Shown piece after piece: positions 6,868 to 50,763 of a stretch of 64,000 bases of DNA (the first letter of the stretch is position 1; each line of letters starts with the position of its first letter). The translations under genes were made by a program, and so were the position numbers. The notes under the pieces were generated by a model. It did not search any database, was not told where the DNA came from, and was given only the letters and a program-made list of their open reading frames with translations. The DNA comes from Prosthecobacter sp. GTDB lineage: Bacteria > Verrucomicrobiota > Verrucomicrobiia > Verrucomicrobiales > Verrucomicrobiaceae. The stretch is from assembly GCA_021733925.1 (NCBI GenBank), contig JAIPJY010000039.1:1-64000 (forward strand), written 5' to 3'.

Positions 6868-6927
6868 GGGTTCAGGGTCACAGGGTCACGACCTATATAT
6901 AGGTCGTGACCCTGTGACCCTGAACCC
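6868..6927. repeat. Perfect 60-bp palindrome
   Basis: The 30-nt left arm (6868-6897) is the exact reverse complement of the right arm (6898-6927), with no loop. The centre is ACCTATATATAGGT. Inside each arm the unit CAGGGTCAC occurs twice (GGGTCACAGGGTCAC). No gene overlaps it. Confidence 0.95.
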
Positions 6928-7022
6928 TACCACTCCGATGGGAATTGACCCTCACCGCCGGTGCCCCACCAACCCCTGACTTCACGTCAGAACGCGCGGC
7001 GCGAATGTGGCCACGGGGAATT

Positions 7023-7120
7023 GCCTTCGCCATGGGCGAACCGTCGCAGGTGGGCAACTTTTGGGAATGGCCGCAGATGCATTGGTGGATGCCTTTGCCG
7101 GCGAGGATGAGGGGAAGGTC
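7023..7120 (-). pseudogene. Decayed copy of a CDGSH iron-sulfur tail
   Basis: Read on the minus strand this stretch encodes LILAGKGIHQCICGHSQK followed by LPTCDGSP. This is nearly identical to the last 30 residues of the gene at 7749-8396 (LAGKGIHDCICGHSQK then MPTCDGSH). The final His of the CDGSH motif is lost (Pro here) and there is no start or upstream coding region. The DNA identity is also plain (GTCGCAGGTGGGCA, GGAATGGCCGCAGATGCA). It is a duplicated gene end stranded on the far side of the gene at 7155. Confidence 0.75.
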
Positions 7121-7154
7121 TGCCTGGCAGCTACGGCTGACGCTGGGTGGTGTG

Positions 7155-7688: not shown

Positions 7689-7748
7689 TGTGGAGTGATT
7701 TGTGTGCATGCTGTGGTATGACTCAGACGCGGCGATTCATATTAGGCA

Positions 7749-8396: not shown

Positions 8397-8419
8397 GGGG
8401 GGATGAATCGGAATTGAAG

Positions 8420-8962
8420 CTAAGGCTGCTTGCTGGGGGCAGTGGCTGCTGGATCAGGCAGTCGGTCGGCAAAAGGGTAGGGAAGGAAATGAGAGCGATC
8501 GATGACGAAGCCTCTTCGCCGAGTGGCAGGGTCTGATGCGGCGAAGTCGGCGATGGTTTCATCCCCGCGCAGAAGCTGGGTGCCGTTGAGTTTCACGTTT
8601 GGAAAGTCGAGGCTGCAGTGTGAGATCAAATGGAAATCGGTGGAAAGGCAGAGCAGAAAGCCGTGGTGGCGTGGCGGGGGATATTCACTGTTTTCTGCGG
8701 AAGACCGAATGAACAGAGCGGTGGCCAGGATAAAACGCTCGTTGCCGCGCTCGATGGTGCCGAGACAGGCAACGGACTGCAGGTTGTAGGAAAACTTGGT
8801 GCCCTTGTCTTGATAGGTATGAGGAGTGAGATGATCGAGCTTCGATGTCACTAATGCGGAGGTGATCTGACCCACGAGATTTGGCTGGGGAGTGTATGCG
8901 CCGGGTTCACCCGCAAGGGCCAGGCATCCGCTGAGGAGGAGGGCAAGGAGTGTGCTGCGCAT
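8420..8962 (-). CDS. Hypothetical secreted protein
   Basis: A 180-residue protein opening with a signal peptide (MRSTLLALLLSGCLALAGEP). Residues 14-17 (CLAL) give no standard lipobox, so signal peptidase I is more likely. The mature part has SVACLGTIERGNERFILATA and HGFLLCLSTDFHLISHCSLD. No family is recognised. The start at 8962 is preferred over a much longer frame, which would overlap the lipoprotein gene at 8991-9455 and reads as out-of-frame protein. It ends 24 bp from the start of the YdeI gene and may be in the same transcript. Confidence 0.6.
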   Translation of the reverse strand: MRSTLLALLLSGCLALAGEPGAYTPQPNLVGQITSALVTSKLDHLTPHTYQDKGTKFSYNLQSVACLGTIERGNERFILATALFIRSSAENSEYPPPRHHGFLLCLSTDFHLISHCSLDFPNVKLNGTQLLRGDETIADFAASDPATRRRGFVIDRSHFLPYPFADRLPDPAATAPSKQP

Positions 8963-9951: not shown

Positions 9952-12306
9952 TCACTTCCTTCGTGTGGGGCTGTCCCTTTTGATGCGATCTCTCTTGATG
10001 GTGTCTTTTTTAATGGTGTCCTTCTTGGGCATGTCCCGGCGTGGGGGCGGGCTGGCGAAGGGGATGTTGGGGAGGGTGGCGATCACCACTGGAGTGGGAG
10101 CGGGCGTGAGGGAGGCGGATTTTTGGGGAGCATCGGCTGGCTTCTTCTTGGGCTCTTCTTTCTTCTTCGGCTCTTCCTTCACCTCCTCGGGCTTCACGGG
10201 GACGCGGACTTGGAACTGGGTTTCTTTGCCGAGGTTCTTTGTCAAAGTGGCGGGGTAGTCCCAGGCGGCTTTGTCGGGGGCGTAGACGACGACTTTGCTG
10301 CGCATGGCGGCCATGGCGGTGGCCTGGGGGATGTCGAGGTATTTGAGGACGTTGAGCATGGCGGGGCCGACGGATTCGGGATCGCCGGAGACGGTGCCGT
10401 TGTGGGTGAGGGGCATGTCGTGGAGATCGAGGCGCTTGACGTTGTCTTCAAAGAGGGAGGCGTAGAGGGCATCCACCGCCATGTCGCGATGGGCCTGGAT
10501 CCAGAGCGGGGTTTCGCCGAAGCCGGGGATGGCGCGGATGGTTTGCAGGGTGCGGCGGACGTCCCAGACGCGCATGCCATCGAGGGTCTGGCCGAGGAGG
10601 TAGAAGCGGCGGAGGCGCTGGGTCTGGGCCTTGGGGCTGCCGGTCCAGGCGGTGGGGCCGACGCCACGTGGGCAGATGTAGGCCATGCCCCATTTGAAAT
10701 TGGTGAACATTTTCTTTTCCTGCTCAAAGGCGGCGTCGTCTTTGGGGGCGCCGGGGAAGACTTCGATGAGCTTGCCAAAGCGGGAGTGGTAGGTGGCGCA
10801 GAAGTCATCCCACCCGGCTTCATCGAGGACGTTGAGCGCGACGAGGTCGAGGTCTTCGGCGCGGAGGCCATCGCGATGGACGACGTAGAGGCGCAGGCGG
10901 AAGGGGGACTGGCTGTCGAAGTCGTAGGCGGTCATGCGGATGCCATAGACTTCGGCGCTGCTTTCCTTCTGCGGATTGACGGAGGCGATTTCCTTGGGCC
11001 AGCCGTTGAAGACTTTGGCTTTGAGATCGTTCATCCAGGTGTCGCTCTGCTTGGACCAATCGGCGGCATTGGTGGCGGGTGCGGGGGCCTTGGCCATGGG
11101 GACGAAGGTTTCGTCGGCCTTGGTGTTGATCTCGTCCTTGGGGATTTCGGTGAAGACTCGGAGGGAGGCGGGCTGGATGGTTTTCTTCGCGCCTTCGTCG
11201 AGCACGGCCATGGAGTCCGCGCCTTTGAGGAAGCGCTCGAACCAATGGAAGGCGCCGATGTTCAGCGGCTGCAGATCTCTGTGCGGACCTTCGGCGACCT
11301 GAAGGCCGATGTTTCCCTCTTTGCCGAGGAGGGTGTAGATTTTGCGCACGTTCTGGTAGATGCGGAAGACGCCGTCGATGGGGAAGATGGTGTCTTTGTC
11401 GGTATTGACGATGAGCAGGGGGCGCGGTGCGTCGAGGGCGACCATGCGCTCGAAATTCCAGCGGTAAGTGTTCACGAAGAACATGCAGTCGCAGTGGCCT
11501 TCGATGCAGCCGTCGATGACCTGATTTTGCATGTCGGTGACGCCGGCGGTGGGGGCGCTGGCTTGGATGCGCTCATCCAGGGCGGTGATCCACCAGGAGT
11601 AGGCACCGCCGCCGCTGCGGCCGGTGACGCCGAAGCGGGTCTTGTCCACTTCCTTGCGGGTTTCGAGGTAGTCGAGGGCGCGGATGCAGCTCCAGGCTTC
11701 GAGTCCGGCGGGGGTGTAGCCGCGTGAGAACCACCACCAGCGGCCTTTGCTGTAGGTGCCGTGGTGTTCACCACGGATCTCGCCGAGCTGCACGGTGTCG
11801 ATGATGAGGCAGGCGTAGCCATGGCGTGCGTACCAGACACCGTGGTGCTCGTAGCCGGTTTTGTTGCCCATGCTGATGCCTTCCTTGACCACATTGGCAT
11901 GACCGCAGACGTAGAGGATGGTGGGCAGGGGCTTCTCCACCTTCTCAGGGAGGTAGAGATTGGCGGTGACGTAGAGTCCGGGCATGGACTGGAAGTGCAT
12001 TTTTTCCACGATGTAGCCGTCGCCTTTGAGCTCGCCGGTCTTGGTGGGGTGGAGCGGGGTTTTCTCTGGCAGGGGATCGAGGCCGAGCATCTCGAACATC
12101 TGGCGGCGGTATTCGGGGGCTTTGGCCTCCCAGTCGGCGGCGGTCTCGATCTGCGCGAGGCCGTTTTCTGCGGTGATCTCGCGTGACTGCTCGGCGAAGT
12201 AGCGGTTGATGAGCCTGTTGCCCAGGGTGTCCGGGGTCTTTTCAGGGTAGGGCGAGGCTGCGAGGACGAGGGACGGCAGCAGGCAGAGGAGCAGGGAAGT
12301 GCGCAT
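9952..12306 (-). CDS. Secreted alpha/beta hydrolase, acetyl-xylan-esterase-like
   Basis: A 784-residue exported hydrolase with a signal peptide (MRTSLLLCLLPSLVLAASPY). Residues 100-360 are an alpha/beta-hydrolase domain of the acetyl xylan esterase type. The nucleophile elbow is GRSGGG, a probable acid is in LLIVNTDKDTIFP, and the His is in EGPHRDLQPL. The middle region (about 400-690) is a second, partly hydrolase-like domain without an obvious catalytic triad. The last 80 residues are a Lys/Pro/Glu-rich tail with short repeats (KKDTIKKDTIKRDRIKRDS). The family removes acyl groups from polysaccharides; this protein is about twice the usual length. It is probably monocistronic. Confidence 0.8.
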   Translation of the reverse strand: MRTSLLLCLLPSLVLAASPYPEKTPDTLGNRLINRYFAEQSREITAENGLAQIETAADWEAKAPEYRRQMFEMLGLDPLPEKTPLHPTKTGELKGDGYIVEKMHFQSMPGLYVTANLYLPEKVEKPLPTILYVCGHANVVKEGISMGNKTGYEHHGVWYARHGYACLIIDTVQLGEIRGEHHGTYSKGRWWWFSRGYTPAGLEAWSCIRALDYLETRKEVDKTRFGVTGRSGGGAYSWWITALDERIQASAPTAGVTDMQNQVIDGCIEGHCDCMFFVNTYRWNFERMVALDAPRPLLIVNTDKDTIFPIDGVFRIYQNVRKIYTLLGKEGNIGLQVAEGPHRDLQPLNIGAFHWFERFLKGADSMAVLDEGAKKTIQPASLRVFTEIPKDEINTKADETFVPMAKAPAPATNAADWSKQSDTWMNDLKAKVFNGWPKEIASVNPQKESSAEVYGIRMTAYDFDSQSPFRLRLYVVHRDGLRAEDLDLVALNVLDEAGWDDFCATYHSRFGKLIEVFPGAPKDDAAFEQEKKMFTNFKWGMAYICPRGVGPTAWTGSPKAQTQRLRRFYLLGQTLDGMRVWDVRRTLQTIRAIPGFGETPLWIQAHRDMAVDALYASLFEDNVKRLDLHDMPLTHNGTVSGDPESVGPAMLNVLKYLDIPQATAMAAMRSKVVVYAPDKAAWDYPATLTKNLGKETQFQVRVPVKPEEVKEEPKKKEEPKKKPADAPQKSASLTPAPTPVVIATLPNIPFASPPPRRDMPKKDTIKKDTIKRDRIKRDSPTRRK

Positions 12307-12399
12307 GAGAGAGGATGACAGCCAAAACGCGCTTCAAAGGCAAGAGTGATCGTCTTTTGCGCAGAAGCGCAGGAAGTGCAGAAAAACGTAAAACAGTGG

Positions 12400-12426
12400 T
12401 TGCATAAAAACTGGATCGTCTATATT
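12400..12426 (+). promoter_or_regulatory. Possible sigma70-type promoter of tRNA-Leu
   Basis: TTGCAT (12400-12405), a 15-bp spacer and TATATT (12421-12426) end 23 bp before the tRNA. The spacer is short, so the exact boxes may differ, but the position and A/T-rich context fit. Confidence 0.4.
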
Positions 12427-12449
12427 CGCGGCCCCTGTTTTCAGCACCT

Positions 12450-12534
12450 GCTCGGGTGGCGGAATTGGTATACGCGCAAGACTAAGGATCTTGTGCCGAA
12501 AGGCTTAAGGGTTCGAGTCCCTTCCCGAGCACCA
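12450..12534 (+). tRNA. tRNA-Leu, anticodon AAG
   Basis: The 85-nt sequence starts GCTCGGG and ends CCCGAGC-A-CCA, so the acceptor stem is perfect and CCA is encoded. The D-arm is TGGCGGAATTGGTA, the anticodon arm CAAGA-CTAAGGA-TCTTG gives the loop CTAAGGA with AAG at positions 34-36, the variable arm (TGTGCCGAAAGGCTTA) is long as in class II leucine tRNAs, and the T-arm is GGGTTCGAGTCCC. A34 is rare in bacterial leucine tRNAs and implies editing to inosine by TadA. A degraded second copy lies at 14641-14719. Confidence 0.92.
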
Positions 12535-12690
12535 CTCTTTGAAGTACAAAGAGTCACGATGGCAGGTGTGACAAAATCTTTGTCTGAGCTACTCAACGTG
12601 AAGAAAATCAAATCAATTGGAAAGTCCGGGATTTGCGGCACATGATTCTGGCAGAATGGGTGGCATATTTATTTTTTATACCAAATCCGG

Positions 12691-13983
12691 ATGATCACCA
12701 AAATCGAAGCGCGGAACTACCGCTGTCTGGCTCATGTCTCCCAAGGACTTGGTAACTTTCACATCATTACTGGCCCGAACGGCAGCGGAAAGAGCACGTT
12801 CTTGGAAGTTCCGCAGGTGATGGCGGCCTTTGCCGCAGGAGGTCTCGAAGATGTATGGGACAAGACGCGGACGCGAAGCATGGGGGAGATCCTATTTCAG
12901 GGAAAAGGAACGTATTTCGATCTGGCGGTAGAAGCAAGGATACCCGATGCAGTAAGAAGTCTGCACATCAATGGCAAAAGTTCTGCTTACTCGCATGTTC
13001 GCTACGAAGTTCGACTGGGGTTGGGCGAGGAGAAGGATGATCCGTTAGACTGGGAGCCGCGCATTTTGGCCGAGAACTTGTGGCTCTTTTCGCCGAATGG
13101 TGACGCTGCTGCACAGGGGGAGCAGCAAAGAGGGAAATTTCCAGACGATGTCTGGCTTCCCGATCTGGGCCCGATGAGCCAGATCATCCACAGGCAAGCT
13201 CCCTCCGGGAAATGGAAAAGAACGGCCAGCAAATCGAAAAATCAGAACAGTAATTTTACGGCAGAGACTACCGGCTACAATCTCCAAATCAAAAATCCGG
13301 CATCAAAATCAGCTCTCAGTACTCTGCCAGAGGATGAGGTTCGATTCCCGCTCTCGAATTGGTTCAAGACCGAACTGGCGGAGCATGTGCAGAAGATTTT
13401 GCTGAATGCTGAATCCATGATGCTTCCTTCGTCGCCGTTGAAGGGCAGACGTTTTGCCGTAGACGGATCGAATCTCCCGCAAGTGGTGCGAGAGCTGAAA
13501 AAAGACACCCCTTCATGGACGGGATGGCTTGAACATCTTCGTACCATCTTGCCGATCGAAGACATTGAAGTCATTGAACGTGACGAGGACAAAACACTTT
13601 ATCTCAAGGTGAAATACAAGTCTGGTCATGAGGTGAAGTCCTGGCACTTGTCCGACGGTACGCTGCGGCTGCTGGCATTGACGCTGCTGGCCTACATACC
13701 TGACGAAGGCAGCATCTATTTGATTGAAGAGCCCGAGAATGGTGTGCATCCACAGGCCATCGAGGCCTTGTATCAGTCTTTGTCGGCCTTGACGGAGGGG
13801 CAGGTGCTGCTGGCCACCCATTCACCTGTGCTGGTGGCGCAGGCGACACCGGCCCAGTTGCTGTGCTTTGCCAAATGCAATGATGCTACAGACATCGTGC
13901 GAGGCGATCTGCATCCCAAGCTCAAGAACTGGAAAAGCTCAGTAAACCTGGCCCAGTTGTATGCTGCGGGAATTCTCAGCTAA
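12691..13983 (+). CDS. AAA/ABC-type ATPase of a putative anti-phage pair
   Basis: A 430-residue ATPase of the AAA_21/SMC-like group. It has Walker A GPNGSGKST at 28-36, an ABC-type signature LSDGTLR near 316-322, Walker B and catalytic Glu in IYLIEEPENGVHP, and a switch His in ATHSP near 380. The N-terminus MITKIEARNYRCL is typical of RecF/OLD-like ATPases. The middle (110-250) is a variable insertion with likely helices. It stands 11 bp before a small TOPRIM-like gene and between two tRNA-Leu copies. Related ATPases with small TOPRIM partners act in phage defence (for example OLD, PARIS, Septu-like systems). The exact system is not one that I can name. Start ATG 12691. Confidence 0.85.
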   Translation: MITKIEARNYRCLAHVSQGLGNFHIITGPNGSGKSTFLEVPQVMAAFAAGGLEDVWDKTRTRSMGEILFQGKGTYFDLAVEARIPDAVRSLHINGKSSAYSHVRYEVRLGLGEEKDDPLDWEPRILAENLWLFSPNGDAAAQGEQQRGKFPDDVWLPDLGPMSQIIHRQAPSGKWKRTASKSKNQNSNFTAETTGYNLQIKNPASKSALSTLPEDEVRFPLSNWFKTELAEHVQKILLNAESMMLPSSPLKGRRFAVDGSNLPQVVRELKKDTPSWTGWLEHLRTILPIEDIEVIERDEDKTLYLKVKYKSGHEVKSWHLSDGTLRLLALTLLAYIPDEGSIYLIEEPENGVHPQAIEALYQSLSALTEGQVLLATHSPVLVAQATPAQLLCFAKCNDATDIVRGDLHPKLKNWKSSVNLAQLYAAGILS

Positions 13984-13994
13984 CCGCGCCGCGC

Positions 13995-14630
13995 ATGGAA
14001 GATCTTGTCATCCTTACTCCTGACAGCGCCTACAAGCAGGTTCTGCCTGCCATTCTGGCAAGGCATCAGGCACTTGGCATCCGCTCTCTGACTCCTGAGA
14101 TTGTTTCTGATCCATACCATGATTCCAGCGATCAAGCAGTGGAGCTTCTGCGAGCTTATCAATCAACCCACCGTCGGGCGTTGATGGTCAGGGATATCGA
14201 GGGCAGCGGGCGTGAAGAACTAGGGGCGGCCGCTTTGGAAAGACACTTGCACCAACAGTTGATGCAAAGCGGATGGCAGAGTGATCATACAGCAGTCCTC
14301 GTTTTGGAGCCTGAACTGGAATCTTGGCTGAGATTTGGCTCCTCCCATATGGGGATGGTGCTAAAAGAGCTGGCCAGAAAGAATCGTGACAAACTGGCCG
14401 ACTGGGAAACGAAACTCGAGCACATATGTGCAGAGCACGGTGGCATGAATGAGCTGGGCAAACCGCTGCGACCTAAAGAAGTATTTCGGGATCTTCTGAA
14501 AGAATACAACATCCCTCCCTCCAATGCCGTGCTGGGCAAACTCGCCGAAAAGGAAAGTCTTCAGGCTTGCCGGGTGCCATCGTTCGTCCGCTTCCGTGAG
14601 CTGATGCAACAGTGGTTTCCTGCTTCCTGA
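13995..14630 (+). CDS. TOPRIM-like partner protein of the upstream ATPase
   Basis: A 211-residue soluble protein. It opens with a Rossmann-like strand (MEDLVILTPD). Residues 62-72 (ALMVRDIEGSG) carry an acidic DxEG motif and residues 101-110 (VLVLEPELES) a second acidic strand. This spacing resembles a TOPRIM/OLD-type nuclease core (DUF4276/DUF4435-like), inferred by eye. The C-terminal part (RPKEVFRDLLKEYNIPPSNA) is helical. It starts 11 bp after the ATPase stop, so the two are an operon. A plausible role is an effector nuclease controlled by the ATPase, as in AriA/AriB-type pairs. Confidence 0.65.
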   Translation: MEDLVILTPDSAYKQVLPAILARHQALGIRSLTPEIVSDPYHDSSDQAVELLRAYQSTHRRALMVRDIEGSGREELGAAALERHLHQQLMQSGWQSDHTAVLVLEPELESWLRFGSSHMGMVLKELARKNRDKLADWETKLEHICAEHGGMNELGKPLRPKEVFRDLLKEYNIPPSNAVLGKLAEKESLQACRVPSFVRFRELMQQWFPAS

Positions 14631-14640
14631 CCGCGGGTTC

Positions 14641-14719
14641 CTCGGCGGCATTGGTATAAGCGCAAGACTAAGGATCTTGTGCCGGAAGGCTTAATGGTTC
14701 GAGTCCCTTCCCGAGCACC
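14641..14719 (+). pseudogene. Degraded second copy of tRNA-Leu(AAG)
   Basis: From CTCGG onward this 79-nt stretch matches the tRNA at 12450-12534 with a few changes and keeps the whole anticodon arm, T-loop and CCA. It lacks the first acceptor bases and about four bases after CTCGG, and has a mismatch in the T-stem (ATGGTTCGAGTCCC). It cannot fold a proper acceptor stem. It marks the right edge of the small island with the ATPase pair. Confidence 0.85.
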
Positions 14720-14859
14720 ACTGACACAATCTCGCCCTCACCGGGGACGGTGGATCAGCGCTGAAGAAGCTGGAGTTCTTTGCTGTGCGGGCGGTGAGAT
14801 GCGGGGAAGGGTGCAGAGGACGGTCGGTCTGCTGGCAAGTAACATCTGTGCACTGGTAT

Positions 14860-15762
14860 TCATTTGGAGACCCGGCAGAGGCCCAGTCTTGAAAAGATGC
14901 CAAGCACAGGCTGAGCCTGGTTCAGGGTGTAAAGGTGGATGCCGGGGACGTTATGGTCGAGAAGATCGGCGCATTGTTCGGTGGCGTGATGAAGGGCGAT
15001 GCGGCGGAAGGCTTCCGGGTCATCGCCAGCGCGATTGAGTGAACGGATGAGGCGTGCGGGGTAGCGCGTGCCGCCGACGAGTTCGGCCATGCGCTGCATG
15101 CCGGTGGCGGTGGTGAGAGGGAGGATGCCGGCGAGGATGGGCGCGGTGATGCCTGCGAGTGTGCAGCGGGCGCGGAAGTCGTGGAAGGCGGCATTGTCAA
15201 AGAAGGCCTGGGTGCAGAGCCAGTCGGCCCCGGCATCGACCTTGGCTTTGAGGTGGTCCATCTCGGTCATGCGATTGGGCGTGGCGGGATGGCCTTCGGG
15301 AAAACAGGCGACGCCGATGCCGAAGCCGCGTGGGTGCGGGTGCAGGCCGCGTTCGTTGAACTGGCGGATGAAGCGCACGAGCTCTGCGGCGTGGGTAAAG
15401 ACGCCGGTGTCGGTGTGGCCTGCGGGAAGGTCGCCGCGCAGAGCCAGGATGTTGCTGACTCCGGCGGCGGCGTAGCGTGTGAGCAGGGTCATGATTTCGG
15501 ACTCGCTGTGGCCGACGCAGGTGAGGTGCGGGATGGGGGAGAAGACATCGCTCTGCGTGAGCTCGGCGACGAGGCTTTGGGTGAGCTCGCGCGTGCTGCC
15601 GCCAGCGCCGTACGTCACGCTGGCAAAGGCGGGACGCAGCGGCGCGAGCTGATCGAGGGTGCTTTGCAGCGTCTTCACCGCCACGGGGGTGCGTGGCGGG
15701 AAGAACTCGAATGAGAACGCAGTGGTGCCACGGGTGGCGGAGAGGATGTCTTCGATGTGCAT
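14860..15762 (-). CDS. metF: 5,10-methylenetetrahydrofolate reductase
   Basis: A 300-residue enzyme of the MetF family that reduces methylene-THF to methyl-THF with FAD, the methyl donor for MetE. Motifs include FEFFPPRT near the start (the catalytic Glu), SVTYGAGGSTRE, HLTCVGHS, NILALRGDLP and TQAFFDN. The length is normal for bacterial MetF. It lies 6 bp downstream of metE (minus strand), so metE-metF is an operon, with regulation probably by the divergent MetR-like gene. Start ATG at 15762. Confidence 0.95.
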   Translation of the reverse strand: MHIEDILSATRGTTAFSFEFFPPRTPVAVKTLQSTLDQLAPLRPAFASVTYGAGGSTRELTQSLVAELTQSDVFSPIPHLTCVGHSESEIMTLLTRYAAAGVSNILALRGDLPAGHTDTGVFTHAAELVRFIRQFNERGLHPHPRGFGIGVACFPEGHPATPNRMTEMDHLKAKVDAGADWLCTQAFFDNAAFHDFRARCTLAGITAPILAGILPLTTATGMQRMAELVGGTRYPARLIRSLNRAGDDPEAFRRIALHHATEQCADLLDHNVPGIHLYTLNQAQPVLGIFSRLGLCRVSK

Positions 15763-15768
15763 GCGGCG

Positions 15769-18120
15769 TTACGCGGTGGGTTGCAACTGCGGTGCGCGGA
15801 GGTTTTTCGCCGTCTGTACCATGTGGATGAGGGAGGTTTTCACTTCGGCCCAGCCGCGTGTTTTGAGACCGCAGTCGGGATTCACCCAGAGATTGCGACG
15901 AGGGATGACGGCCTCGGCTTTGCGCATGAGGTTTTCCATTTCGCTGACGGAGGGCACACGCGGGGAGTGGATGTCATACACGCCGGGGCCGATCTCGTTG
16001 GGGTATTTGAAGTCCACGAATGCACCGAGGAGTTCCATGTTGGAGCGGGAGGTCTCGATGGTGATGACATCAGCGTCCATGTCTGCGATAGCGGCGATGA
16101 TGTCGTTGAATTCGGAGTAGCACATGTGCGTGTGGATCTGGGTGTCATCACGCACGCCGCTGGCGCTGAGGCGGAAGGCGGTGACGGCCCAGTCGAGGTA
16201 GTGGGCCCAGTCGAAACGGCGAAGAGGGAGACCTTCGCGGATGGCGGGCTCGTCGATCTGGATGGCGGCAATGCCGGCGGCTTCGAGGTCCACGACTTCA
16301 TCGCGAATGGCGAGGGCGATCTGGCGTGTGGTCTCGGAGCGCGGCTGGTCATCGCGCACAAAGCTCCACTGCAAGATGGTGACGGGGCCGGTGAGCATGC
16401 CTTTCATGGGGCGCGTGGTGAGGGACTGGGCGAACTTCGACCAGCGCACGGTCATGGGCGCGGGGCGGGAGACATCGCCGTAGATGATGGGCGGCTTGAC
16501 GCAGCGGGTGCCGTAGCTCTGCACCCAGCCGTTGGCGGTGAAGAGGAAGCCGTCGAGCTGCTCGCCGAAATACTCCACCATGTCATTGCGCTCGAACTCG
16601 CCGTGAACGGGCATGTCGAGGCCGATGTCGTCTTGAAGGGCGACGCAGGCGCGGGTTTCATTTTCCAGGTAGGCTTCGTACTCGGCGGCGGTGAGGTCGC
16701 CTTTTTTCCACTTGGCGCGCATGGAGCGCACTTCGGCGGTCTGTGGGAATGAGCCGATGGTGGTGGTGGGGAATTCGGGGAGTGCGAGGCGAGCGTGCTG
16801 CAATGCCTGACGCTGTGGGAAGGGGGAGTGGCGGCGCGCATCGGCATCGGTGACGAGCGCGAGGCGTGCTCTGACTTCGGGATTGTGGGTGCGGCGGCTG
16901 GTGGCGCGGCTGTGGATGGCGTCTTGATTGTTTTCCAAGACGCCGCTGCGGGAGACGTTGCGCAGCAGTGCGCTGAGGGTGACGACTTCGGTGAGTTTTT
17001 GATCGGCAAAGGCGAGCCAGTTTTCGATCTGGGCATCCAGTGCTGGCTCGGAGGCGAGGGTGACGGGCGAGTGGAGCAGCGAGCAGGAGGGAGCCACCCA
17101 CAGGCGCTGCAGGCCCAGCCTGGCCTTTGCTGCCGTGAGCAGTTTTAGGGATTTGGTGAAATCATTCTTCCAGATGTTGCGGCCATTGACGACGCCGAGG
17201 GAGAGGATTTTATCCTGCGGCAGATGGTCCAGCACCTCATCGAGCTCTGCCGGAGCACGTGCGCAGTCACAGTGGAAGGCGTGCGCAGGGAGTGAGAAAA
17301 ACAGCGGCAGATTTTCCCGCAGGGCACCGAAGTAACTGGCGACGATGATTTTCAAGCCGGGCGCGGCAGCCGTGATGCGACGCCAGGCGTCCACGACGGC
17401 GTCGCGCTGCTGTGGGGAGAGATCAAGCGCGAAGATGGGCTCGTCGATCTGCACCCACTCGGCTCCTTGCTCGGCGAGGCGTTGCAGGATTTGTTCATAG
17501 ACTGACACCAATCCGTCGAGCAGTGACCAGCGGTCGAAGTCGGGGTTTTGGGAGTCCTGGACTTTGCCGAGTGAGAGGTAGGTCACGGGGCCGGGCAGGA
17601 CGGGCTTGGCGCGCAGGCCGAGTGCTTTCGCTTCGGCGAATTCGCGGAAGACTTTGCTGCCGACGAGCTGGAACTGTGTGTCCGCGCGGAACTCTGGGAC
17701 GATGTAGTGGTAGTTCGTGTCGAACCATTTGGTCATTTCGCAGGCAAAGGCGGCCTCATGGCCGCCGCAGCCATGGGCGCAGCCTTGGTGGCCTTCACCG
17801 CGTGAGCCGCGTGCCATGAGGAAGAGGGTGTCGAGGCAGATGTCTTCACCCTGCCAGCCAAAGCGTGGGGGCACGTTGCCGATGAGGCAGGAGAAATCGA
17901 GCATCTGATCGTAGAACGAGAAGTCGTTGCAGGGGATGAGGTCGATGCCTGCGGCGCTCTGTTTGGCCCAGTTGTCACGGCGCAGACGGCGGCCGGTGGC
18001 TTCCAGCTCCTCCTGGGAGAGCTTGCCATGCCAGAAGGCTTCGGTGGCTTTTTTGAGTTCGCGCTGCTCGCCGATGCGCGGGTAGCCCAGATTGTGTGTG
18101 TGAATGATGTGGTCGCTCAT
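15769..18120 (-). CDS. metE: Cobalamin-independent methionine synthase
   Basis: A 783-residue enzyme that transfers the methyl group of 5-methyl-THF (polyglutamylated) to homocysteine. The N-terminus HTHNLGYPRIGEQRELKKA is characteristic of MetE. The C-terminal half has the zinc site: HMCYSEFNDI (His, Cys) and NPDCGLKTRGW (Cys), with ITIETSRSNMELL between. The length equals the usual 750-790 residues. Start: ATG 18120 aligns with the family start, whereas the longer frame to 18183 adds 21 unrelated residues. It is in an operon with metF and faces the metR-like chimera. Confidence 0.95.
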   Translation of the reverse strand: MSDHIIHTHNLGYPRIGEQRELKKATEAFWHGKLSQEELEATGRRLRRDNWAKQSAAGIDLIPCNDFSFYDQMLDFSCLIGNVPPRFGWQGEDICLDTLFLMARGSRGEGHQGCAHGCGGHEAAFACEMTKWFDTNYHYIVPEFRADTQFQLVGSKVFREFAEAKALGLRAKPVLPGPVTYLSLGKVQDSQNPDFDRWSLLDGLVSVYEQILQRLAEQGAEWVQIDEPIFALDLSPQQRDAVVDAWRRITAAAPGLKIIVASYFGALRENLPLFFSLPAHAFHCDCARAPAELDEVLDHLPQDKILSLGVVNGRNIWKNDFTKSLKLLTAAKARLGLQRLWVAPSCSLLHSPVTLASEPALDAQIENWLAFADQKLTEVVTLSALLRNVSRSGVLENNQDAIHSRATSRRTHNPEVRARLALVTDADARRHSPFPQRQALQHARLALPEFPTTTIGSFPQTAEVRSMRAKWKKGDLTAAEYEAYLENETRACVALQDDIGLDMPVHGEFERNDMVEYFGEQLDGFLFTANGWVQSYGTRCVKPPIIYGDVSRPAPMTVRWSKFAQSLTTRPMKGMLTGPVTILQWSFVRDDQPRSETTRQIALAIRDEVVDLEAAGIAAIQIDEPAIREGLPLRRFDWAHYLDWAVTAFRLSASGVRDDTQIHTHMCYSEFNDIIAAIADMDADVITIETSRSNMELLGAFVDFKYPNEIGPGVYDIHSPRVPSVSEMENLMRKAEAVIPRRNLWVNPDCGLKTRGWAEVKTSLIHMVQTAKNLRAPQLQPTA

Positions 18121-18139
18121 AGCGACGCAATAACTATCG

Positions 18140-18163
18140 CTGGATTCAGCATTAACAATCCAG
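18140..18163. promoter_or_regulatory. Candidate LysR-type operator between metE and metR
   Basis: CTGGATT (18140-18146) and AATCCAG (18157-18163) form a perfect 7-bp dyad with a 10-bp centre containing TTCAGCATTAA, a T-N11-A-type layout. It sits in the 85-bp divergent gap, 20 bp from the metE start, as expected for a MetR target. Confidence 0.45.
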
Positions 18164-18205
18164 AGAGTTTTGTGGATCATCATCGAAAATGGTTATGATG
18201 GCAGC

Positions 18206-19420
18206 ATGATCGAAATCCGCCATCTACATGCCCTGATTGCCCTCGCTGAGACGGGGAACCTTTCCAAGGCGGGCCGCCGTCTGCATCTTTCGCAGCCTGC
18301 GCTGTCGCATCAGGTGAAGAGCATCGAGACGCATCTGGGGGTGCCGTTGTTTGAGAGGAAGAGCAGCCCGATCAGGCTGAGCCCGGCGGGTGAGAGGCTG
18401 CTGGGCACGGCGCATGAGATCGTGAAACAGATGCGGCAGTGTGAGCGGGATGTGGCACGCATTGCGGAAGGGAAGGCGGGGCAGCTGCGCATCGCGGTGG
18501 AGTGCCATTCGTGCTTTGACTGGCTGATGCCGGCGATGGATGAATTTCGCATCGCGTGGCCGGAGGTGGAGATGGATCTTGTCTCAGGGTTTCAGCCTGA
18601 CCCTACCGGATTGCTCATCGAAGATCAGGCGGATCTGGTGATTGTTTCCAAAGCGCCGGCTCGCAAGGACGTGGTGTATCATCCGCTGTTTCGCTACGAG
18701 GTGCTGGCGCTGCTGGCGCATCAGCATCCGCTGACGCGGAAGCGATTTCTCACGGCGCAGGATTTTGCGAAGGAGACGCTGATTACGTATCCGATTCCGG
18801 ATGACCGCATTGATGTGGTGCGGGAGGTGCTGGGGCCGCTGGGTCTCGAAGCCAACGCAAACGCCTTGGCGCGCTATGCGGCCTTGTGCCAGGAGGTGGG
18901 GCTGGTGCCCATCGTGGAACCTGAAGTGCTCATGACGGGCGAGCATACGCTGGAGCGCTGCTACAATGTCACGCGGGAAGTGCTGAGAACGGTTTTCATT
19001 CAGCTCAACTGCCAGCGTGTGCTGCTGGAAGGGATGATACTCAAACCGAACATGGTGCTGCCGGGATTGAGCTGTCCGACGCAGGTGTCCGTGGATGAGG
19101 TGGCAGATGCCACGGTGAATTGCTTGCTGCAAACCGTCCCTGCGGCAGTTCCGGGCATTGCGTTTCTCTCAGGTGGTCAGTCCGCGAAACTCGCCTCGGC
19201 CCGGCTGAATGCGATGAGCGTTCGCTTCAAGTCGCGTGCGCCGTGGGCCCTGGCGTTTTCGTTTGCCCGCGCCATTCAGCAGCCGGCATTGGAAATCTGG
19301 CGTGGCGACAAGGCAAACGTGGAAGCGGCCCAGCAAGCGCTGCTGCATCGGGCGAGGTGCAATGTGGCTGCCCGTCGTGGAATCTACACCGATGCCACAG
19401 AAGGGAGCGGAACAAACTGA
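18206..19420 (+). CDS. In-frame chimera: N-terminal half of MetR fused to C-terminal half of class I fructose-bisphosphate aldolase
   Basis: Of 404 residues, 1-216 match the MetR type of LysR regulator: winged helix (MIEIRHLHALIALAETGNLS, LSQPALSHQVKSIE), then LRIAVECHSCFDWLMPAMDE, diagnostic of MetR, up to DDRIDVVREVLGPLG. From about residue 217 (N at 18854) the sequence switches to class I aldolase: NANALARYAALCQEVG, VPIVEPEVLM, LLEGMILKPNMV (Schiff-base Lys280), GIAFLSGGQS, PWALAFSFARAIQQPALEIW. Missing are MetR's second effector subdomain and aldolase barrel strands 1-4 with their catalytic Asp and Lys residues. No stop or shift lies at the join. It is probably a deletion scar joining metR with an aldolase gene of the downstream sugar operon. 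The DNA-binding part may work; aldolase activity is unlikely. Assembly error is the alternative. Confidence 0.9.
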   Translation: MIEIRHLHALIALAETGNLSKAGRRLHLSQPALSHQVKSIETHLGVPLFERKSSPIRLSPAGERLLGTAHEIVKQMRQCERDVARIAEGKAGQLRIAVECHSCFDWLMPAMDEFRIAWPEVEMDLVSGFQPDPTGLLIEDQADLVIVSKAPARKDVVYHPLFRYEVLALLAHQHPLTRKRFLTAQDFAKETLITYPIPDDRIDVVREVLGPLGLEANANALARYAALCQEVGLVPIVEPEVLMTGEHTLERCYNVTREVLRTVFIQLNCQRVLLEGMILKPNMVLPGLSCPTQVSVDEVADATVNCLLQTVPAAVPGIAFLSGGQSAKLASARLNAMSVRFKSRAPWALAFSFARAIQQPALEIWRGDKANVEAAQQALLHRARCNVAARRGIYTDATEGSGTN

Positions 19421-20112
19421 TGCCTCTGCACGTACATCTCATCCGGCACGGCGAAACCGAATGGACCTTCTCCGGCCGCCACACCGGACGTACCGACATT
19501 CCACTGACCGCGCTCGGCGAGGACGAAGTGCGGGAGTGGGGGCAGCGTCTCTGCCGAATCCCTTTTGACCATGTGCTGACGAGTCCCCTCATACGGGCGC
19601 AGCGGACCTGTGAGCTGGTCGGACTGGCCAGGGACGCCGAGCTGGAACCCGACTTGCAGGAGTGGGACTACGGCGACTACGAGGGCCTGGGCTCCGTGGA
19701 CATCCGCAAGGAGCGGCCCGGATGGAATGTGTTTCGCGACGGGTGTCCGAACGGCGAAACGACCGAAGAAATTTGCGCCCGCGCAGACCGGCTCATCGCC
19801 CGCCTGCGCACGATGGAAGGCAACGTGGCGCTCTTTTCACACGGTCAGTATGGCAGTGTGCTGGCTGCGCGCTGGATTGGGTTGTCGGTGGTCGAAGCGC
19901 GGCATTTTCCTCTGGGCGCGGCATCGCTGAGCATTCTCAGCGATGATCCGCATCATCCCGAGGTGCCGGTCTTGGAGCTGTGGAATGCCGCCCCCCACGA
20001 AGCGACCCATCTGGCTCCCGTTTCCCGTGAAGTCGATCACATGCCCTTGAAAGAACGCGCGCTCCAACGCTGGGAGAACGAAGGCGGGGAGATACCCGCG
20101 GCAACTCGCTGA
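19420..20112 (+). CDS. Histidine phosphatase (phosphoglycerate mutase-like)
   Basis: A 230-residue enzyme of the histidine phosphatase superfamily. The catalytic LIRHGETEW is near residues 6-14, the conserved RAQRTCEL follows at about 62-69 (HVLTSPLIRAQRT), and the second catalytic His is in ALFSHGQYGS. The family hydrolyses or transfers phosphate on sugar phosphates. Start ATG 19420 overlaps the stop of the chimera (TGATG), so it is translationally coupled; the frame continues upstream but inside the aldolase part. It forms an operon with the HAD and GH130 genes, suggesting sugar-phosphate work. Confidence 0.85.
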   Translation: MPLHVHLIRHGETEWTFSGRHTGRTDIPLTALGEDEVREWGQRLCRIPFDHVLTSPLIRAQRTCELVGLARDAELEPDLQEWDYGDYEGLGSVDIRKERPGWNVFRDGCPNGETTEEICARADRLIARLRTMEGNVALFSHGQYGSVLAARWIGLSVVEARHFPLGAASLSILSDDPHHPEVPVLELWNAAPHEATHLAPVSREVDHMPLKERALQRWENEGGEIPAATR

Positions 20113-20116
20113 CCTG

Positions 20117-20890
20117 ATGAAGAAGCTCATAGTTTTTGACCTTGATGGAACACTTGCCGTGAGCAAGGCGCCGCTGGATGCCGAGATGGCCGGGCTGCTG
20201 GGTACTCTTTTAGGCATCGTGAAAGTGGCTGTGATCTCGGGTGGTGCCTGGTCTCAGTTTGAGGCGCAGGTGCTCGCCAATTTTCCGCATGATGCGCAGC
20301 TCAAGGGCCTGTCGTTGCTGCCGACCTGCGGCACGAAGTTTTACCAATATGATGCTGATTGGAAGCAGCTGTATGCCGAGAATTTCACGGCGGAGGACAA
20401 AGAGAAGATCCTCCGCTCTCTGAATCAGGTCATGGATGACACGGGCTTCAAGCCCGAGAAGACGTGGGGCGAGATCATTGAAGACCGAGGGAGTCAGATC
20501 ACGTTCTCGGCTTTGGGTCAGCATGCTCCCATTGAGGCCAAGGAGAGGTGGGACCCGGATATCGCGAAGCGGAAGAAAATGCAGGAGCGCCTCGATGCGT
20601 TCATCCCTGAGTTCTCGGTGCGTCTGGGTGGCACGACGTCCATTGATGTCACCAAGCCCGGGATCGACAAAGCTTATGGCATTCGCAAGCTGCGCGACAC
20701 GCTCGGCATCGCCATTGATGAGATGATTTTTATTGGCGATGCGCTGTTTCCCGGAGGCAATGATTATCCGGCGAAGGAGGCTGGCGCGTTGTCGATTCAG
20801 GTCAGAGATCCCGAAGAAACCAAGCGGGTGGTCGAGACGATTCTCGCGTGTCTGAGTGACTGGACACCGCCGCCGGCCCTAAAAGCATGA
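20117..20890 (+). CDS. HAD-IIB hydrolase resembling eukaryotic-type phosphomannomutase
   Basis: A 257-residue protein. HAD motif I is FDLDGTLA (Asp8, Asp10), motif II VAVISGGAWSQF, motif III Lys in TKPGIDKAYG, and motif IV is IGDALFPGGNDYPA. The GD-x4-PGGND-Y ending and overall layout match eukaryotic-type phosphomannomutase and related HAD-IIB phosphatases. With GH130 next to it, conversion between mannose 1-phosphate and 6-phosphate is a reasonable role. It starts 4 bp after the phosphatase gene and overlaps GH130 by ATGA. Confidence 0.85.
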   Translation: MKKLIVFDLDGTLAVSKAPLDAEMAGLLGTLLGIVKVAVISGGAWSQFEAQVLANFPHDAQLKGLSLLPTCGTKFYQYDADWKQLYAENFTAEDKEKILRSLNQVMDDTGFKPEKTWGEIIEDRGSQITFSALGQHAPIEAKERWDPDIAKRKKMQERLDAFIPEFSVRLGGTTSIDVTKPGIDKAYGIRKLRDTLGIAIDEMIFIGDALFPGGNDYPAKEAGALSIQVRDPEETKRVVETILACLSDWTPPPALKA

Positions 20891-21984
20891 GTGATTTCCA
20901 GCTCAAGCGCCTCGGGCTCATCATGGAACCTGAACCTGGCAATGCGCATGATGTCGAAGGAACGCTGAATCCTGCGGCTGTTCGCGGGCCGGATGGAGAG
21001 CTTTATCTCTTTCCGAGACTCGTCGCGAAGGGCAACTATTCGCGCATTGGCATCGCCCGGGTGAAGTTTGATGAGGCGGGTGATCCCTGCGGAATCGAGC
21101 GGCTCGGCATCGCCCTCGAACCGGAGGCTGACTATGAAAGACTGCCGGGTGGTGGTGGCGGCTGTGAAGACCCTCGCGTGACGTTTGTCGAACCGCTGCA
21201 TCATTATGTGATGACCTACACGGCGCTGTCACCGCGTGGGCCGCGCATTGCGCTGGCGATGTCCAAAGACCTGTTTCACTGGGAGCGCATCGGGCTGGCG
21301 AATTTTGAGCCGTATCAGGGCATCGACTTTGTGCATGTGGACAACAAGGATGCGAGCATCTTCCCCACGGCGATTCCGAATCATGTGGGGAAGCTTCAGC
21401 TCGCGATGCTGCACCGCCCGCTATTCGCCGGCACACGCCCTGAGGAAACCGTGTGTCAGGGTGCTGACCGGCTGGTGGATCTCGATCATGAAAGCATCTG
21501 GATTTCCTACTGCCCGATGCCGTCGGACAATCTGGAGCCGCACCATCCTGGCCTGTTCAATTCCCATCACCGGCTGGCAACGCCGACTGCGCCATGGGAG
21601 AAGCTCAAAATCGGCGGCGGCACTCCGCCTGTGCTCACTCGTCATGGCTGGCTGGTCGTTTATCATGGTGTGAGCAAGGCGACCGAGCCGGACAAGGTCG
21701 GGCGACAGCTCTGCTACTCGGCGGGCGTGATGGTGCTGTCTGAGGAGCATCCGCGCATCATTCGCTACCGATCACCGGAGCCAGTGCTGACGCCGTCCTC
21801 ACCGGAAGAACTTGAAGGAATGATCTCCAACGTGGTCTTTCCGACAGGCATCGACCGGCGGGATGATCTCGGCACGCCGGACCGGTTCGATGTCTATTAC
21901 GGCATGGCGGACAGCCGCATAGGCGTGGCGCGGCTTGATCTGCCGGAATGCCTGCCGGGGCATGAGAAAGAAAAGCTGGGGTGA
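20887..21984 (+). CDS. GH130 family glycoside phosphorylase (beta-mannoside type)
   Basis: A 365-residue protein of the GH130 family, inverting phosphorylases that release mannose 1-phosphate from beta-mannosides. Visible motifs are GTLNPAAVRGPDGELYLFPR, GGGGGCEDPRVTF (catalytic Asp after CE), DNKDASIFP, IGGGTPPVLTRHGWLVVYHG and the C-terminal YYGMADSRIGVA typical of the five-bladed propeller. It is the last gene of the coupled operon. Together with the HAD and phosphatase genes it suggests mannose salvage into glycolysis, in which an aldolase would also fit. Confidence 0.9.
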   Translation: MSDFQLKRLGLIMEPEPGNAHDVEGTLNPAAVRGPDGELYLFPRLVAKGNYSRIGIARVKFDEAGDPCGIERLGIALEPEADYERLPGGGGGCEDPRVTFVEPLHHYVMTYTALSPRGPRIALAMSKDLFHWERIGLANFEPYQGIDFVHVDNKDASIFPTAIPNHVGKLQLAMLHRPLFAGTRPEETVCQGADRLVDLDHESIWISYCPMPSDNLEPHHPGLFNSHHRLATPTAPWEKLKIGGGTPPVLTRHGWLVVYHGVSKATEPDKVGRQLCYSAGVMVLSEEHPRIIRYRSPEPVLTPSSPEELEGMISNVVFPTGIDRRDDLGTPDRFDVYYGMADSRIGVARLDLPECLPGHEKEKLG

Positions 21985-22553: not shown

Positions 22554-23603
22554 ATGAACATGAGCCTGACTACCCCCAAGGATCATGGTCTGCCCAAGGT
22601 GCCATTCTGGAATGGAGTGAGGTGCGCAGTGAGTGTGACTGCGGCATGGCTCCTGATGACTGTGGCCGGAGGCGGGCTTGCCTGCGCGCTGAACGCGGGC
22701 GCGGCGAAGGAGAGCCCCAAGGACCGGGTGGTGGCCAAGGTGAACGGGATGCCGATTTTCGCCTCAGACCTTGATGCGATGATCCATGCGCAGGAGCGGG
22801 TGATAAGGTTTCAGTTTGCCAATGATCCAGCTCGTTTGAGGAAGGAACTGGCGGAGGTGAAACGCAATGCGCTCAACGGACTCATCGACTTTCAGCTGCT
22901 GGAGGATGAGTTCTTCAGGCTCGGCGGTGTGATCCGGAAGGAGGACATCGATGAAGATGTGAAACTGGCCATCCAGGAAGCATTCAAGGGAGATCGCGCG
23001 GCTTTGATGGCGGAACTCAACGCCATCGGCATGACCTATGGCAAGTATCGCGAGCTGAGAGAACAGATGATCATGGTCAGCGCGGTGCGGGCCCGAATAG
23101 CGAACAAGGTGGAGGTGACGGACAAGATGGTGAGGGAGCACTATGAGAATAACCTGCAGAAATGGCGCGGGCCGGAGTCGGTGAAGTTTCACACGCTGAC
23201 GATTTTCAACACATCCGCCAATGCCCGCAGTCTGGCGGAGGGCCTGCGAATGAAGCTGGCCAGCGGCGGAGACTTTGCGGAGATAGCCCGTGAGAACAGC
23301 AAGGACAGCCGCGCGGATGACGGCGGCGCATGGCCGTGGACAAGCATTGCAAATATCAACAACAATGTGGGCAAGGTCATGGAGAAGATGAAAAAGGGAG
23401 AACTCAGCGAAGTGCTGGAAGAGCCGAACTCCTTTGTCATCCTGCGTGTGGATGACATTCGGAAGACTGAGCCGAAGCCGTTTGAAAGCGTGAAGGAGGA
23501 AGTGAAAAAGTCCCTGATGGAGGAACTGAGCAGGGAGAAGATCGAGAACCGGCTGTGCCGGCTGCGCGAGGCGGCGGAGATCCAGAAGATGGGGCCGGTG
23601 TAG
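22554..23603 (+). CDS. SurA-like periplasmic peptidyl-prolyl isomerase/chaperone
   Basis: A 349-residue exported protein. After a hydrophobic signal segment (VSVTAAWLLMTVAGGGLACA) comes the SurA-type N-terminal domain (VVAKVNGMPIFASDLDAMI, RNALNGLIDFQLLEDEF). A parvulin-type PPIase domain follows at about 215-310 (ESVKFHTLTIF, GDFAEIARENSKDSRADDGG, ELSEVLEEPNSFVILRVDDI). It is probably a periplasmic chaperone for outer-membrane proteins. ATG 22554 is taken; 22560 is equally possible. The next gene is a close paralogue, a tandem duplicate. Confidence 0.85.
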   Translation: MNMSLTTPKDHGLPKVPFWNGVRCAVSVTAAWLLMTVAGGGLACALNAGAAKESPKDRVVAKVNGMPIFASDLDAMIHAQERVIRFQFANDPARLRKELAEVKRNALNGLIDFQLLEDEFFRLGGVIRKEDIDEDVKLAIQEAFKGDRAALMAELNAIGMTYGKYRELREQMIMVSAVRARIANKVEVTDKMVREHYENNLQKWRGPESVKFHTLTIFNTSANARSLAEGLRMKLASGGDFAEIARENSKDSRADDGGAWPWTSIANINNNVGKVMEKMKKGELSEVLEEPNSFVILRVDDIRKTEPKPFESVKEEVKKSLMEELSREKIENRLCRLREAAEIQKMGPV

Positions 23604-23711
23604 GGGAGGGGAGCTGGCAGGGTATGACGTCGGAGCCCCTGGATTCCGCGAAAGCATGAGGCTTTCAGTTCGTTGTTGCTGGTTCCTAGTTCGCCTTTGT
23701 TTGACTACTCC

Positions 23712-24707
23712 ATGAAATCACTGAGTTCCCTTTTACCGCCAGTCTGCGCATGCTGTGCATGGCTGCTGATGACGCTGGCGGGTGGCGGGGATGCCTGCGC
23801 GCAAGCTCCCCAGGAAGAAACGCAGAACCGGATGGTGGCCAAGGTGAACGGTGCGCCGATCCTGGTCTCAGATCTCAAGCAGGTGGCCGCAGCGCAGGCG
23901 CAGGTGATCCGGCAGCAGTTCGCGGATGATCCCACGAAGCTGGAGAAAGAAATGGCCGCAGTGAAGCTGAATGCGCTCGACACTCTCATCGACTGCCAGC
24001 TGCTGGCGGATGAGTTTTACAAACTCGGCGGCGTCATGCAGCCGGAGTTTTTGGAACAGGATCTGACTCAGATCATCCAGATGGCGTTCAGGGGGAACCG
24101 CGAGGCCTTCATGGCGGACCTGGCGAAAAACGGAATGGCCTTGGAGAAGTTCCGCGAGCTGCGGGAGCGGATGATCATCATGAACGTGATGCGCGCGCGA
24201 ATTGCGGGCACGGTGAAGGTCACGGAGGAGGAGGTGCGTGAGCACTATGAAAAGAACCTGCGGCGCTGGAGCGGTCCGGAAATGGTGAAACTGCACACGG
24301 TGACGATCAGCAAGACGACCGCCGATGCCCGCAGTGTGGCAGAGAGCGTTCACACGAAGCTGGTCGCGGGCGGCGACTTTGCGGAGATCGCGCGCAAGAG
24401 CAGCGCGGACAGCCATGCGGCGCGCGGGGGTGAGTGGAAATGGATTTACCTTTCTGATCTCACGGGCACGGTTAGCGAGGTCGTCCTGAGTACGAAAAAG
24501 GGGGAGATCAGCGAGGTGATCGAACAACTGGACGCTTACATCATCGTGCGTGTGGATGACCGTCAGGAGGGTGAGCCGAAACCGTTTGAGAGCGTGAAGG
24601 CTGAAGTGGCCAAGTCGCTCATGGAGGAGGTGAGCAAGGAGAGGATCGAGAAACGACTGATCCAGCTGCGGGCGGCGGCGGACATTCAGCGGATGGGGGC
24701 GGAGTAG
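23712..24707 (+). CDS. SurA-like chaperone, tandem paralogue
   Basis: A 331-residue paralogue of the preceding gene with the same architecture: signal peptide (ACCAWLLMTLAGGGDACAQA), VAKVNGAPILVSDLKQV, RARIAGTVKVTEEEVREHYE, then the PPIase core (GDFAEIARKSSADSHAARGG, ISEVIEQLDAYIIVRVDD). The start ATG 23712 opens into the signal. The two genes share roughly half their residues and are 108 bp apart. Duplication suggests a specialised client set, unknown here. Confidence 0.85.
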   Translation: MKSLSSLLPPVCACCAWLLMTLAGGGDACAQAPQEETQNRMVAKVNGAPILVSDLKQVAAAQAQVIRQQFADDPTKLEKEMAAVKLNALDTLIDCQLLADEFYKLGGVMQPEFLEQDLTQIIQMAFRGNREAFMADLAKNGMALEKFRELRERMIIMNVMRARIAGTVKVTEEEVREHYEKNLRRWSGPEMVKLHTVTISKTTADARSVAESVHTKLVAGGDFAEIARKSSADSHAARGGEWKWIYLSDLTGTVSEVVLSTKKGEISEVIEQLDAYIIVRVDDRQEGEPKPFESVKAEVAKSLMEEVSKERIEKRLIQLRAAADIQRMGAE

Positions 24708-50756: not shown

Positions 50757-50763
50757 AATCCAA

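What the first reader, a model, noticed from the sequence alone, without database searches (positions are those of the whole stretch)
18206..19420. MetR-aldolase chimera: half a LysR regulator fused in frame to half a class I fructose-bisphosphate aldolase
The first 216 residues match MetR (RIAVECHSCFDW is diagnostic). From residue 217 the protein is the C-terminal half of class I aldolase, keeping Schiff-base Lys280 and Glu238 but lacking barrel strands 1-4 with their catalytic Asp and Lys. The join is seamless. It sits beside metE, where metR belongs, and heads a coupled sugar operon in which an aldolase would fit. A deletion that removed the metR 3' end and the aldolase 5' end best explains it. 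The product may be a constitutive or altered regulator of metE-metF, and the strain would lack this aldolase.
Basis: partly seen in the sequence, partly recalled or inferred. Interest (0 to 1): 0.85.

Follow-up and report, generated by a model that had tools for sequence, protein, structure and literature searches.

The report
Deletion-born MetR–aldolase gene fusion
In one Prosthecobacter-like bacterium a deletion of some 20 kb appears to have joined the front of a methionine-gene regulator, in frame, to the back half of a sugar enzyme, making a hybrid gene seen in no other genome checked; it is a natural curiosity of genome change rather than a known working machine.

Summary
The fusion is there as described: one 404-residue frame (18206-19420). 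Residues 1 to about 213 are MetR (LysR type); 214-404 are the last 191 residues of a class I fructose-bisphosphate aldolase (FBA). Same-genus relatives carry both genes intact. The closest, G039, matches the window along metR up to base 18843 and along fba from base 18843, with no inserted base. In relatives metR is followed by an antiporter and signalling genes, and fba is preceded by its own partners; this DNA was not found in the window's genome. G042 is collinear with the window on both sides of the join. Among 386 genomes of the order and 80 named loci the fusion occurs once. The half-aldolase should not be an aldolase; the genome has a class II enzyme. Neither half shows relaxed selection, so the event is very recent or the product is still constrained; one genome cannot tell which. 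My reading: a recent deletion whose hybrid has lost homocysteine sensing and puts the downstream genes behind the metR promoter. No reads were available to exclude an artefact.

The parts
18206..18843 (+). 5' part of metR: winged HTH, linker helix and first two thirds of the effector domain (residues 1-213)
   Evidence: Pfam PF00126 and PF03466; 94% DNA identity with intact metR of G039 up to base 18843
18843..18843 (+). fusion point inside codon 213; no inserted bases, about 1-3 nt of microhomology
   Evidence: blastn blocks 14873-18843 and 18843-20147 against G039; junction lined up with four metR and ten fba sequences
18844..19420 (+). 3' part of class I fructose-bisphosphate aldolase (residues 214-404 plus stop), with the Schiff-base Lys (280) and Glu (238) but without the first half of the barrel
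   Evidence: Pfam PF00274 profile 148-335 of 349; 89% protein identity with G039 fba
18121..18205 (.). metE-metR intergenic region, largely conserved in six relatives; should carry the promoter that now drives the fusion
   Evidence: alignment of seven genomes, G000 included; no TGAA-N5-TTCA site with 0-1 mismatch found; promoter itself not tested
15769..18183 (-). metE (start more likely at 18120)
   Evidence: NCBIfam PRK05222 1143.8 bits; relatives
14860..15762 (-). metF
   Evidence: TIGR00676 296.5 bits over cut-off 293.7
19420..20112 (+). histidine-phosphatase gene, overlapping the fusion's stop codon (TGATG)
   Evidence: PF00300 E 9.5e-44; the same overlap in G039
20117..20890 (+). HAD-IIB hydrolase; in the genus found only here and in G051
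   Evidence: TIGR01484; 2 of 48 genomes, this one included
20887..21984 (+). GH130 mannoside phosphorylase-like gene
   Evidence: PF04041 E 5.6e-36; also follows fba and the phosphatase in G039 and G046

Best explanation
A deletion of about 21-26 kb in the chromosome of a Prosthecobacter-like bacterium removed the last 93 codons of metR, the genes after it, the upstream partners of fba (ackA and the phosphoketolase gene xfp), and the first 152 codons of fba. By a one-in-three chance the ends met in frame. Shown: the join in the assembly, the intact parent genes in relatives, the absence of the intervening DNA from the assembly, and both flanks collinear with a relative. Inferred: (1) the event is recent; (2) the hybrid keeps the MetR DNA-binding head and linker helix, so it may still dimerise and bind the metE-metR region, but its homocysteine pocket is incomplete, so it should be weak, inactive or dominant-negative as an activator of metE rather than constitutive; (3) the half-aldolase has no catalysis; (4) the metR promoter and the overlapping stop/start codons now feed the phosphatase, HAD and GH130 genes.
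For: G039 carries intact metR and fba, and the window switches from one to the other at a single base. G042, on one contig, matches the window's left flank up to base 18843 in metR and its right flank (window 22.1-41.9 kb against G042 25.6-45.6 kb) in the same orientation. G051, on one contig, has metR, then further genes, then the sequence that lies just before ackA in G039. G046 has the window's hydrolase gene (9952-12306) beside ackA, followed by xfp and fba, on the expected side. The whole missing segment in G039 coordinates (1-5828 and 63405-78427) was searched in the window's own genome in three queries; only the retained parts, short dispersed repeats and short or diverged stretches matched (40 of 141, 40 of 109 and 40 of 75 first-look candidates were scored). 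No relaxation is visible: omega on the G000 branch 0.068 for the fba half (background 0.118) and 0.024 for the metR half (background 0.025); G000 departs at 0 of 76 otherwise invariant fba columns and 1 of 177 metR columns.
Against: No single contig of a relative shows metR and fba in the required order. G039 has both on one contig, about 57 kb apart and in the reciprocal order; the required order appears only if its two contig ends are neighbours, which G042 and G051 support but do not prove. G042 lacks the fba gene, and in G051 it lies on separate small contigs. The assembly is 93% complete in 127 contigs and no reads were seen. The last of the three searches for missing DNA had no positive control (one search says so). 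Lack of relaxation is equally expected if the hybrid is selected or if the join is an artefact. What the hybrid does is wholly inferred.
Confidence: 0.72

Rival explanations
1. Assembly or amplification artefact: the two genes are separate and intact in the organism, and the contig is a false join.
For: Only one genome carries the join; no reads or coverage available; the assembly is in 127 contigs and 93% complete; the unrelaxed sequence fits an artefact too.
Against: The missing metR and fba ends, and the DNA between, were not found on any other contig. The parent genes share only about 1-3 nt at the join, too little, by inference, for a k-mer assembler to bridge without reads that span it. 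The flanks fit a collinear chromosome.
Confidence: 0.12
2. The hybrid is a selected, working regulator in which half an aldolase barrel replaces the effector end of MetR, perhaps still holding a sugar phosphate by Lys280 and Glu238.
For: Open frame throughout; both halves look constrained on the G000 branch, with a rough upper bound for the fba half of omega near 0.15, which by simple averaging leaves only about 4% of the branch for neutral drift; a second lineage (G003) keeps the same half of fba after losing the other half. Half barrels of another (beta-alpha)8 enzyme, HisF, have been made to fold as fragments (recalled, from no call).
Against: A very recent event gives the same numbers; one genome only; no test of fold or function. 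The OxyR DNA-binding domain alone had no regulatory activity, and truncations into its last helix weakened activation (PMC8787470, passages).
Confidence: 0.07
3. The join marks a circle, a tandem duplication or a translocation rather than a simple deletion, as the linear order in G039 (metR 5' to fba 3' is the reciprocal of a deletion) would suggest at face value.
For: In G039:C83 as assembled, joining metR 5' to fba 3' would need a circle or duplication junction.
Against: The window's contig has no exact end overlap of 15-2000 bases; its right flank does not follow G039 38-61 kb but is collinear with G042; the other halves were not found, which a duplication would have kept.
Confidence: 0.06

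Closest known systems
MetR, LysR-type regulator of methionine genes
   Same: N-terminal HTH, linker and most of the effector domain; divergent from metE, as described for E. coli and Salmonella (PMC5002191, passages).
   Different: Last 93 residues replaced by aldolase sequence; no TGAA-N5-TTCA site with 0-1 mismatch found between metE and metR here or in six relatives.
Class I fructose-bisphosphate aldolase (PF00274, NF033379; e.g. PDB 3mmt, 1ado)
   Same: C-terminal half with the Schiff-base Lys and a Glu of the active site (roles recalled from rabbit aldolase); the intact G039 enzyme matches solved aldolases over residues 7-340 of 343.
   Different: First 152 residues missing, including the DES, GIKVD and AKWRA segments (active-site roles recalled).
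Gene fusions created by deletion between two same-strand genes (recalled as a kind)
   Same: Join inside both genes, almost no microhomology, lost segment between, downstream genes put behind a new promoter.
   Different: The pair of genes; no LysR-aldolase fusion was met in the sequence searches or in the listing.

Membership tests
MetR (NCBIfam NF011950, equivalog) | score over the curated cut-off of 382 bits | tested here: not met
   Fusion 194 bits; but intact metR of G039 reaches only 235.8, so the model looks too narrow for this phylum
MetR (NCBIfam NF011950, equivalog) | divergent neighbour metE with a conserved intergenic region | tested here: met
   window metE 15769-18183 (-); largely conserved region in seven genomes
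MetR (NCBIfam NF011950, equivalog) | complete effector domain | tested here: not met
   PF03466 matched only to position 133 of 209
MetR (NCBIfam NF011950, equivalog) | response to homocysteine | not testable with these tools
   needs a bench assay
Class I FBA (PF00274 / NF033379) | score over the curated cut-off | tested here: met
   242 bits against 22.2 and 262.5 against 250, though with half the profile
Class I FBA (PF00274 / NF033379) | complete barrel with all active-site residues | tested here: not met
   profile matched from position 148 only; 152 of 343 residues of the G039 enzyme missing (alignments)
Deletion-born fusion | both parents intact in relatives, with the intervening DNA lost here | tested here: met
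Deletion-born fusion | both parents on the same strand in the right order within reach of one deletion | tested here: inconclusive
   holds if the ends of G039:C83 are neighbours, as in G042 and G051; not seen on one contig
Deletion-born fusion | junction present in the cell's DNA | not testable with these tools
   no reads held

The most novel reading that the evidence does not exclude
The C-terminal half barrel of class I FBA is a selected module in its own right: here it serves as the new effector end of a MetR hybrid that links the metE-metR switch to sugar phosphates, and in G003 it stands alone after an independent loss of the first half.
Probability: 0.06. Interest if true: 0.75.

Novelty: new member of a known kind. 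Interest (0 to 1): 0.4.

Why it matters
It is a clean natural example, with the intact parents in close relatives, of how one deletion can make a chimeric regulator-enzyme gene and hand an operon to a new promoter. If the hybrid proved to be active, it would show a regulator gaining a new sensor in one step.

Tried and rejected
Simple in-place decay of a full aldolase or metR: rejected, since the two retained parts abut with nothing between them. Circularity: no exact end overlap in the window's contig (15-2000 bases tested) or in G039:C83 (15-3000 bases). MetR consensus site TGAA-N5-TTCA in the metE-metR region: none with 0-1 mismatch in seven genomes, so the binding site is unidentified. A protein alignment of the hybrid with both half-families (A1, 44 rows) placed the aldolase halves against the MetR half and was discarded; no structure was predicted and no fold searched. 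The first ORF map missed the phosphatase gene through a greedy overlap rule; it was replaced by tblastn with window proteins. Literature: the listings (101 papers, 12 listed; 1; 3; 0; 8) showed no such fusion; only passages of PMC5002191 and PMC8787470 were read.

Limits of counts; 48 genomes of the genus, 11 with any PF00274 match, this one and G003 with half of it; 386 genomes drawn from the order, 66 with a match at 1e-40 or better, 1 with the fusion; 4 first-look candidates were scored in each listed genome. Selection tests used 7 sequences for metR, 11 for fba, 5 for the phosphatase, 4 for GH130 and 6 for metF; metE was aligned but not tested. A G003 phosphatase row was dropped for an in-frame stop in the matched stretch, and matches that covered under 85% of the query or were under 45% identical were not taken. 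Results in other directions: on the G046 branch the fba omega was raised (0.275, p 0.023), on the G039 branch the metR omega was lowered (0.001, p 0.027), and the downstream phosphatase departs in G000 at 4 of 109 otherwise invariant columns, with omega 0.097.

Full report
What is there. The frame 18206-19420 (+) encodes 404 residues without a stop. Its first part matches LysR-type regulators, best MetR, and its second part class I fructose-bisphosphate aldolase, each as a fragment of its family: LysR_substrate up to position 133 of 209, Glycolytic (PF00274) from position 148 of 349. It stands divergent to metE, which is followed by metF, and its stop codon overlaps the start of a histidine-phosphatase gene; then come a HAD-IIB hydrolase and a GH130 gene.

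Kin. The window is bases 1-64000 of contig C69 (66,248 bases) of a 7.3 Mb genome in 127 contigs, 93% complete. A same-genus relative, G051, has a contig of the same size and number (C102, 52,333 bases) as a record named Prosthecobacter sp. D1-2020 MAG001, and G005 likewise (C34, 75,940 bases) Brevifollis gellanilyticus; so the genus is Prosthecobacter-like. This naming is an inference from sizes and numbers.

Parents. G039 has an intact metR (306 aa) and an intact fba on one contig. The window follows the metR of G039 to base 18843 (94% identity in metR, 92% over the whole block from metF) and the fba of G039 from base 18843 (88% over the block), with no bases between. The parents share about 1-3 nt at the join, depending on which fba relative stands for the ancestor. 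In 10 of the 10 fetched fba loci of the genus the phosphatase follows. xfp (phosphoketolase) lies directly before fba in G039, G046, G002, G012, G044 and G051; in G049 and G057 it lies some 5-8 kb away, in G050 only fragments matched, and in G003 nothing. ackA (acetate kinase) precedes xfp in G039 and, with another frame between, in G046. metR is followed in G042 by a sodium/proton antiporter and a hybrid histidine kinase.

Deletion. None of the metR 3' end, the sequence after it, ackA, xfp or the fba 5' end was found elsewhere in the window's genome. Queries G039:C83 1-6466, 62801-74000 and 74001-78427 together cover the whole missing segment. The first gave the retained metR part, dispersed repeats of up to about 170 bases near its 5.3-5.5 kb, one 72% match of 391 bases on contig C11 and other short ones; the second the retained fba part and four stretches of 48-137 bases on C11; the third nothing (40 of 141, 109 and 75 first-look candidates were scored, and warns that an empty answer without a positive control shows little). 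PF00274 occurs once in the genome, as the half gene. G042 is collinear with the window on both sides: its 447-8891 with window 10162-18843, and its 25.6-45.6 kb with window 22.1-41.9 kb, same orientation, with some gaps. G051:C102 runs from metR to the sequence that lies before ackA in G039, 22.2 kb. G046 has the hydrolase gene of window 9952-12306 beside ackA, then xfp and fba. The common order is thus hydrolase, metF, metE, metR, antiporter and kinases, ackA, xfp, fba, phosphatase, GH130, and a deletion of about 20.9 kb (G039, contig ends taken as neighbours) to about 26 kb (G051 plus 4.2 kb of ackA-xfp-fba 5' of G039) gives the window. The weak point is that no one contig shows the whole order: as assembled, G039 has the two genes about 57 kb apart in the reciprocal order, and only closure of its ends, whose counterparts are neighbours in G042 and lie within 1.1 kb in G051, restores it.

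How common. Among 386 genomes of the order only G000 has a match over 1-404; the listed matches of the others cover one part. Among 80 named loci 12 have the metR part, 68 the fba part, none both.

Selection. A codon model with a free omega on the G000 branch gives 0.024 for the metR part (background 0.025, difference p 0.96) and 0.068 for the fba part (background 0.118, difference p 0.20); omega of 1 is rejected for both (p 6e-8 and 2e-8). Profiles put the upper bounds near 0.09 and 0.15. If the fba half had drifted freely after the deletion, then by simple averaging only about 4% of the branch could have been free. So the deletion is recent or the product is constrained; the data do not choose. 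The codon model is my own code and was not checked against a standard program.

What it does (inference). The half aldolase lacks the segments with the Asp and Lys residues of the first half barrel (roles recalled) and should not cleave fructose bisphosphate; a class II aldolase is present. The hybrid keeps the DNA-binding head and linker. In OxyR, another LysR-type protein, the DNA-binding domain alone had no regulatory activity and truncations into the last helix reduced activation, though some response to peroxide remained (PMC8787470, passages). I therefore expect a regulator that no longer answers to homocysteine and activates metE poorly, rather than a constitutive one. The metR promoter and the conserved overlap of stop and start codons would carry transcription and translation into the phosphatase, HAD and GH130 genes; retention of that coupling is one plain reason why an in-frame join could have survived.

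A parallel. G003 has also lost the first part of fba (PF00274 from position 126), and no xfp or ackA was found in the 16 kb fetched; the remaining half overlaps a BNR-repeat gene on the other strand at its upstream edge and is still followed by the phosphatase. Its branch omega for fba is 0.079. Two lineages have thus kept the same half of fba with the phosphatase, which could be chance, selection on the downstream gene, or (least likely) a use for the half barrel.

Verdict. It is an interesting natural chimera, a new member of a known kind, with its function open.

Noticed in passing
12450-14722: A tRNA-Leu gene (12450-12534) and a second, 95% identical copy of the 79 bases 12458-12536 at 14644-14722 (not called as a tRNA) bracket a two-gene insert: an AAA-ATPase (12691-13983; HEC-01A and mad3 among its best PADLOC matches) and a 211-aa protein (13995-14630; weak mad4 match). 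The fetched stretches of G039, G042 and G046 have a single copy of the repeat. It looks like a small defence island in a tRNA gene; no third gene was looked for between the repeats.
   Followed up: partly
L036:4802-5470 (G003:C9): An independent truncation of class I aldolase: only the second half remains, its upstream edge overlapping a BNR-repeat gene on the other strand, still followed by the phosphatase gene.
   Followed up: partly
22650-24707: Two neighbouring PPIC-type peptidyl-prolyl isomerase genes with SurA-like N-termini, 71% identical in DNA over about 970 bases: a tandem duplication.
   Followed up: no
41224-41833 and 50575-51241 with 56184-56838: Direct repeats: a tandem repeat with a step of 228 bases (89% identical) and two copies of a 0.67 kb stretch (80% identical).
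   Followed up: no
18120-18183: The longest metE frame starts at 18183, but the codon that fits the G042 gene start (MSD.IIHTHNLGYPRIG) is at 18120; the start at 18183 would leave only 22 bases to metR.
   Followed up: partly
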